Origin: Enchytraeus crypticus
Lineage: Eukaryota > Annelida > Clitellata > Enchytraeida > Enchytraeidae
Assembly: GCA_905160935.1 (NCBI GenBank)
Contig: CAJHZI010000537.1
Coordinates: 909,501 to 973,500 of the forward strand
Direction: 5' to 3'
Length of the DNA stretch: 64,000 bases
The position numbers were made by a program, and so were the translations under genes. The notes under the pieces are model-generated. The model was given only the letters and a program-made list of their open reading frames with translations, did no database searches and had not been told where the DNA came from. Every line of letters starts with the position of its first letter. Positions within the stretch are counted from its first letter, which is position 1. Positions 422 through 62,368 of the stretch are shown one piece after another.

Positions 422-3400
422 GTGAGTCATTGTTAGTGATGCGTTGATGATTGATTAGTGGCAATACGTCATAGTGACTACGTATTAGTGCAATACGTCT
501 ATAGTGAATACGGATGTATTGATTATTAGGCCAAAAGTATAAGTGAATAGGATTTAGGATTATTAAATTTATTTAGTGGCCAATACGTATATAGTGAATA
601 CGTTTAGTGGCAATACGTATGAGTGAAACGGAATTAGTGATTATTACTTTATTAGTGGCAAACGTATATAGTGAATACGGATTATTGCTTTTATTAGTGG
701 CAATACGTATATAGGGGAATACGGATTTATGATTATAGGGGCAATACGTTATAGGGAATCGGATTTATGAATTATTTTTATAATCAGTTAATATTTCTCG
801 CAGCAGTGATTTTTGGAGTGGCCTAAATCAGATGTTTTCAGTCAAAAGGCGAATCAGATATTCGACGATGATAATCGGGGAATATTCAGACCAAGCCGGT
901 ATAATGGATGAGATAGAATCAATTGCCAAGATTAAGTAGAGATTAGAAGTGTTTAATGAAAATGCGAAATTATTGCGCTTGATTAATCATTATCTTTCAT
1001 AGTTCATTATGATGGTTTGTTTGCTTTATTGATTACTAACCTGTGCATATGGCTGAATAGAGTTAAATTAGATTTAGATAGTAGATTTGCTCGATGATTA
1101 GAGATTGCTTGCCTGTAGAGTTGTCATGACGACAATATGACTCTGAGGCTGGTTGTTGTTGTTGTAGATCACTTGGTGGCGCACGGTAAGATTGAACGAG
1201 AAGGAGGCTCGTAAGAAGTTCAGCAGATCATAGCGGCCGGGGTGGCGTACCCGTCACACCCACTGCGTCGTCGTGACACAGGAGACTCCAAGCTGAGAAA
1301 CCTTCTGCTTGGAATCCTCCCGCAACATCAAAATAGCAGGTCAGATCTCCACCCAACCGCTTTTCTATCTATTACGTAAGATTTTATGTATTTTATCTAT
1401 CCATTTTTTGATCACGGGACTGGCTTTCGTGTAGGGACCTTTACGTCTCCTCAGCACATTTTCTTTTGCAGAGTGGTCTGGGTGAATTGATCTGTAGTGA
1501 TGGTGGGCTGGTGGGAACGTCCAGACATAATCCCTGGATGAGCAAACTGGCATTTAACCTTTATGGTTATTATTATATTATTTTAAAGCTGAAAGCTGGT
1601 AAAGCTTAGGTTAGCCGTTTCAGTTCCTCACTCGGCAAGCGTTTCAGTGACGGGCGAGCCTAGGATTAGATAGAATCCGCACATACTGAGCCATGGCGAG
1701 ATCTTACCGACTTCGCCCTGACTCCAGTCAGTAAAGCTACAGCTGGTGAAGCTAAGGTTAAGGCAGTGTCCTAACTTGAAAGTGATGTCAGTGACAGACG
1801 AAGCCCAGGATTATGAAACCGCACATGCTGATCCACGGGTCGAATATTCTTACGACTGGCCACTGGTTCCAGCCAGTTATATAACTATGCATATGTACTG
1901 GCTTAATTATAACAGAGAAAACTTATTTGTGGCTCTGTCCAGTTTTGAGGATTTATCCATAAAGGTCAGCTGCAACATTTCCAAGCCATGTCATTTGATA
2001 TTTATTTACTATGTGTTTATTGATTGATAGATTTTAATAATTATTGATTGTCTAAATTGATTGTCTGATGATTGTCTAATTGATGTAATTATTATTGTCT
2101 AATTGATTGTGGGATTGGTGGTCTAATTTGATTGGCTGATGTCTATTGGTTGTTGATTGATTGGCTGATGATTGTATAATTGATGTAGGATGATGTTGAT
2201 GATGCTAATTGATTGTATAATGGATTGTCCTGATCGATTGTCTAATTGGCTATCTAATTGTCTAATCGATTGTCTAATTGATTGTCTGATTGATTGTCTG
2301 ATTGATTGTTTAATTGATTGTCTAATTGATTGTCTAATTGATTGATTTATTGTTTGCTGCAGACTTTGGGTTCAGTAATTATTTTAAAGGTAACAACGAC
2401 CTGCTATCAACCCACTGTGGGAGCCCGCCCTATGCTGCCCCTGAACTGTTTGAGGGCCAACAGTACTGCGGCCCCAAAGTGGACATATGGGTTAGTAGAG
2501 CCACGATTTATCAGTACATTTATCGTAATTAATTAGTTAATTAATTAATTATTTATTATTTTTCCGGTGGTGTATTAAGTTCCAGTGGTGTATTTCCAGT
2601 GTATGTATGTGTATGTCTGTGTGTAGTGTATGTATGTGTCTGTATATGTATGTGTGTAGTGTATGTATGTATCCAGTGTATTTCCAGTGGTGTATTATTA
2701 AGTGCCTCCACAGGATTCTAAAGGATCTTTGTTTTAGCCTGGGTCTCACTCTTGTCTACTTTAATATTATTATATTATTGATTATTTGAAAAATTATTGA
2801 TTATTTGTAGAATAGATTTTGTACAGGCATTTGTCTCTATAGATAAATCTGAAATACTTAATTGATTGATTGATTGATTGATGAATTGATTGGTATAGCT
2901 TGGGTATAGTATTGTACATAAATATGCTGGTGTAAGGAGCTCTACCATTTAACTAATTCATTAGTACATTTATTAACTCTTGAATGTTTGTTTGACTGAT
3001 TAATCGGTTGATTTACTGACTTACCGGTTGATTGATTGATTTATTGATTGATAGAGCCTGGGTATAGTGCTATATGTACTGGTATGTGGAGCTCTTTCAT
3101 TTGATTGATTGATGATTGATGATTGATTGATTGATTTATTGATTGATAGAGCCTGGGTATAGTGCTCTATGTACTGGTATGTGGAGCTCTTTCATTTGAT
3201 TGATTGATTGATTGATTGAGTGACTGGTTGATTAAGTGATTGATTGATTGATTGATTGATTGACAGAGCCTGGGTATAGTGCTCTATGTACTGGTATGTG
3301 GAGCTCTTCCATTTGATGGAAGCACACTGCAGAGTCTTAGGAAGAGAATCATGTCGGGAAAGTTCAGAGTCCCTTTCTACATGTCCTCAGGTAGTTTTCC

Positions 3401-62368: not shown

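What the first reader, a model, noticed from the sequence alone, without database searches (positions are those of the whole stretch)
2850..61475. Exon edges with their splice sites are amplified in tandem throughout all three genes
At SIK exons 4, 9, 10 (both sides), 11 (both sides), 12 and the stop-codon end of 14, at DLGAP exons 2, 4 and 5, and at LASP exons 2, 3 and 9, a 30-130 bp block is repeated 3 to ~43 times. The block consists of a few to ~80 exon bases, the splice site and nearby intron. Copies always keep one edge and never a whole exon, and the true exon is the terminal member. This is seen directly. A locus-wide process, not one-off duplication, is inferred: replication slippage, repair at paused splice-site sequence, or R-loop-linked amplification. 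Known models of intron gain use tandem duplication of AG|GT segments, and these arrays could be the raw material or a by-product.
Basis: partly seen in the sequence, partly recalled or inferred. Interest (0 to 1): 0.9.

Follow-up and report, generated by a model that had tools for sequence, protein, structure and literature searches.

The report
Tandem repeats overrunning exon edges
In an unnamed, probably mollusc- or worm-like animal, short tandem repeats often run across exon edges and copy splice sites; this is real, but it looks like the ordinary spill-over of repeat-rich introns, a pattern already known from amphioxus as 'mirages'.

Summary
The arrays are real: 13 of the 14 edges claimed carry extra copies (DLGAP 'exon 4' does not; one of the 13 is a stop-codon end, another has one clear copy). 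Five Markov-simulated windows give no junction-spanning arrays. 'Intact exon terminal' and 'never a whole exon' follow from geometry. Of 59 decoy donors keeping GT, 55 follow an in-frame stop, so splicing presumably ignores them. Such arrays are published from amphioxus as 'mirages', with the same intron-gain idea; this animal is almost certainly not amphioxus. Against this reading: in the window arrays are denser near exons; this was not replicated elsewhere. Side finding: sense-strand TTGAT tracts lie upstream of acceptors (8 of 23 and 6 of 96 introns, none antisense), perhaps branch-point arrays, some from SINE tails, that seed acceptor-side arrays.

The parts
2861..3320 (+). SIK3-like E3 acceptor array: three copies of (TTGA)n plus splice-site position plus 46-54 exon bases (boundaries 2896, 3054, 3149; the oldest has lost AG) before the true acceptor 3266|3267
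8260..8567 (+). SIK E8 donor array, 51/48-bp unit; 6 decoys, 5 with GT, the first four in frame with no stop
8610..8776 (+). SIK E9 acceptor array, 42-bp unit, 8-13 exon bases
8842..10174 (+). SIK E9 donor array, 30-bp unit: 43 decoy copies, 42 with GT, all preceded by an in-frame stop
10874..11248 (+). SIK E10 acceptor array, 131-bp unit, two copies with 60 or more exon bases (60 was the probe limit), (TTGA)n on the intron side
11358..11752 (+). SIK E10 donor array (true donor 11369|gtgagt); 8 decoys, 4 with GT
12041..12767 (+). SIK E11 donor array; 8 decoys found, 4 with GT and 4 with GC
15626..16088 (+). Repeated stop-codon end of SIK last exon, overlapping an apparent interspersed repeat (by eye); not a splice site
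33987..34344 (+). DLGAP E1 donor array, 45-bp unit; 7 decoys, 4 with GT, all preceded by an in-frame stop
37279..37615 (+). DLGAP E4 acceptor and one clear upstream copy (37295, 47 exon bases), a TTGA-tailed SINE-like element between; not tandem
50613..50973 (-). LASP E8 acceptor array, two copies with about 60 exon bases (probe limit), (TTGA)n on the intron side
57258..61053 (-). LASP E3 acceptor array: three copies at 60852-61053 and one next to the exon, split by a LINE
61268..61496 (-). LASP E2 acceptor array, 44-bp unit, 5.0 copies by TRF, 16-19 exon bases
57694..60355 (+). LINE-type element (endonuclease and reverse-transcriptase domains in two different frames) inside LASP intron 2
37499..37540 (+). 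SINE-like core with TTGA tail, 29 nt upstream of DLGAP E4 acceptor
39157..39198 (+). Same SINE-like core, 33 nt upstream of DLGAP E5 acceptor

Best explanation
These are minisatellites of the 'mirage' type. Short tandem duplications arise throughout the introns of this genome, some of them from microsatellite tracts such as (TTGA)n, and then grow by unequal exchange or slippage. Those that start near an exon sometimes take in the exon edge. Selection tolerates them because the intact exon stays outermost and the true splice site is still used; arrays wholly inside coding exons have units that are multiples of three. Shown: the arrays, their presence in other genes, and the lack of junction enrichment in the sample. 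Inferred: slippage or exchange as the mutation step, and correct splicing.
For: Junction-spanning arrays are no more frequent than the array density of introns predicts, in the window and in 96 introns at 16 other loci. Arrays occur throughout introns and intergenic DNA. TRF rows wholly inside coding exons have periods 12, 21, 39 and 42, all multiples of three; the 19- and 20-bp rows lie inside the 39-bp array. In four acceptor arrays (SIK E3, SIK E9, LASP E2, LASP E8) the copy nearest the exon is the most similar to it, as expected if new copies form at the exon side. In SIK E3 the exon-side breakpoint shares TTGAT with the tract, and in LASP E2 the exon holds TGTGCTTCA, which also stands just before the acceptor (by eye). 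The LASP E3 array is split by a LINE, so it predates that insertion. Published mirages are described as length-unstable and not disturbing splicing.
Against: The window is a hotspot: 12/48 junctions against 10/192 elsewhere (P=1.6e-4). In the window 36% of positions within 250 nt of exons lie in arrays against 20% of all non-coding positions, a value that no rotation reached; within long introns the zone under 300 nt is also denser (P 0.011-0.043 over six overlapping settings). Both hint at exon-linked formation; the second did not recur in 39 myosin-locus introns of 700 nt or more (P=0.77). Similarity does not fall regularly with distance in the donor arrays or in SIK E10 acceptor. Microhomology was read by eye in chosen cases, without a null model.
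Confidence: 0.82

Rival explanations
1. Splice junctions or nearby exon sequence provoke amplification (R-loops, paused forks, repair at splice-site sequence), so the arrays mark a junction-directed or exon-directed mutation process.
For: Many arrays per gene in the window; arrays denser near exons in the window; window junction rate above that of the myosin-type loci.
Against: No excess at the junctions themselves in either data set; the exon-proximal excess in long introns does not replicate.
Confidence: 0.08
2. The repeated splice sites are functional: spare donors or acceptors give regulated or length-variant transcripts.
For: SIK E8 has four decoy donors in frame without a stop, which would add Leu-rich blocks; human IFI6 uses repeat-borne donors (citing Turri 1995).
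Against: 55 of 59 decoy donors with GT follow an in-frame stop, and use of each of the 10 acceptor copies that keep AG would bring in a stop. Some arrays have lost the site in many copies.
Confidence: 0.07
3. The arrays are assembly artefacts.
For: The SIK exon at 1167-1339 is frame-broken, so the window's left end may be of poor quality; raw reads are not available here.
Against: Copies differ from one another, one array is interrupted by a LINE, and similar arrays occur on other contigs.
Confidence: 0.03

Closest known systems
Amphioxus 'mirage' minisatellites (Adh3, globins BflGb6 and BflGb9, PGBD5, troponin C); passages of PMC3087553 and PMC3902484. The founding paper (Canestro 2002) was seen only as a reference entry; not held
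   Same: Tandem copies of part of an exon, its splice site and nearby intron; both 5' and 3' edges; many copies keep AG/GT; units of 10-72 bp (Adh3) or 150-160 bp (globins); intron-gain model proposed.
   Different: Different animal (nearest named relatives are mollusc and annelid). Up to 43 decoy copies here, and a background-controlled count of junctions, which the passages read do not give. Length instability and undisturbed splicing are reported there and could not be tested here.
Human internal tandem repeats at exon-intron boundaries (PMC2812944, outline and passages)
   Same: Minisatellite-type repeats at exon-intron boundaries.
   Different: There the repeats can form new introns or alternative splicing in recently duplicated genes; no such change was shown here.
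Human IFI6 (6-16) splice-donor minisatellite (Turri 1995; seen only as cited in passages of PMC4526556; not held)
   Same: Repeat units that each offer a splice donor.
   Different: Downstream donors are used there; nearly all here would follow a stop codon.
Earthworm metallothionein genes (PMC12783039, passages)
   Same: An annelid gene with intronic minisatellites (monomers 25-216 bp) and extra copies of exon 4 that are absent from the transcript.
   Different: The passages describe repeats inside intron 1 and copies of exon 4, one of them reversed; they do not describe arrays of an exon edge with its splice site.
Intron gain by tandem duplication in a potato RdRp gene (PMC4974935; search listing and start of abstract only)
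   Same: Tandem genomic duplication as a proposed source of introns.
   Different: No gained intron was identified here.

Membership tests
Mirage minisatellite | Tandem repeat unit that includes an exon-intron boundary | tested here: met
Mirage minisatellite | Occurs at both 5' and 3' exon boundaries and in several genes | tested here: met
Mirage minisatellite | Many copies bear splice signals | tested here: met
   59 of 72 donor copies keep GT; 10 of 12 acceptor copies keep AG
Mirage minisatellite | Regular splicing undisturbed | not testable with these tools
   no transcript of this animal was found
Mirage minisatellite | Length instability between alleles or cells | not testable with these tools
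   no reads or second haplotype at hand
Junction-directed amplification | Arrays at junctions exceed arrays at random intronic positions | tested here: not met
   12/48 against 31.5%, P=0.82; 10/192 against 5.9%, P=0.77
Junction-directed amplification | Arrays denser near exons than deep in introns | tested here: inconclusive
   window P 0.011-0.043; myosin-type loci P=0.77
Intron gain by tandem duplication | A new intron within former coding sequence, flanked by duplicated AG|GT segments | not tested
   no related species with known intron positions compared

The most novel reading that the evidence does not exclude
In this lineage TTGAT works as a branch-point motif. Sense-strand (TTGAT)n tracts, some supplied by the tail of a SINE, sit just upstream of acceptors as ready-made branch-point arrays; being microsatellites, they repeatedly seed tandem duplications that copy the acceptor and exon edge. 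A mobile-element tail would then link splice-site function to a steady supply of spare splice sites.
Probability: 0.25. Interest if true: 0.6.

Novelty: new member of a known kind. Interest (0 to 1): 0.35.

Why it matters
It extends mirages, which my searches found named only in amphioxus, to a distant animal. It also supplies a background control: about 5% of junctions sampled elsewhere in this genome are spanned (25% in the window), no more than intron repeat density predicts, so no splice-linked mechanism is needed. The in-frame SIK E8 decoys and the TTGAT tracts are concrete, testable side leads.

Tried and rejected
Splice-site targeting was tested and rejected in two data sets. Exon-proximal enrichment seen in the window did not replicate in long introns elsewhere. 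No RNA family reached its gathering score and no tRNA was found in the window. Literature searches for mirages outside amphioxus (18, 15, 15 of 31, and 1 papers listed) showed none named so in molluscs or worms. Of the papers on such animals in those listings I opened two for passages: earthworm metallothionein, which is related, and zebra mussel, where the passages do not bear on it. Only open-licence PMC papers were searched. An association between TTGA tracts and acceptor arrays was not tested formally. DLGAP E4 donor was moved from 37721 to 37719, made with the new model, again gives 12 of 48.

Full report
What the window is. It is animal DNA, part of a 524-Mb assembly of 802 contigs (window = C444:909501-973500). 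It holds a SIK3-like kinase gene (+, 13 exons in the window), a DLGAP-like gene (+, 5 exons) and a LASP gene (-, 8 exons). Exon models were read from the sequence and are phase-consistent, except the first SIK exon in the window, which is frame-broken. LASP domains are confirmed by Pfam. The nearest named relatives are mostly molluscs, with a leech, for LASP and molluscs for SIK3; the best LASP hit of all is unnamed (67% identity). No named Branchiostoma protein appears in the listed hits. The animal is probably a spiralian and almost certainly not amphioxus; no tree was built.

Noticed in passing
acceptors of SIK E2, E3, E10, E13; DLGAP E1, E2, E4; LASP E5, E8: Three or more TTGAT within 70 nt upstream of the acceptor at 9 of 25 acceptors, none with three in antisense form; also seen at 6 of 96 acceptors in myosin-type loci of the same genome.
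   Followed up: partly
37499-37540, 39157-39198, 6087-6128 (- strand): A SINE-like family with a TTGA tail; two of the three well-matching copies lie about 30 nt upstream of acceptors.
   Followed up: partly
8266-8466: Four SIK E8 decoy donors keep the reading frame open and would add Leu-rich blocks of 16-17 residues each.
   Followed up: partly
1167-1339: The first SIK exon in the window is frame-broken although kinase-like; perhaps uncorrected sequence, perhaps decay.
   Followed up: partly
57694-60355: LINE with endonuclease and reverse-transcriptase domains in different frames, inside LASP intron 2.
   Followed up: partly
35510-35700 and 60600-60840: An apparently shared repeat in the DLGAP and LASP introns, seen by eye.
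   Followed up: no
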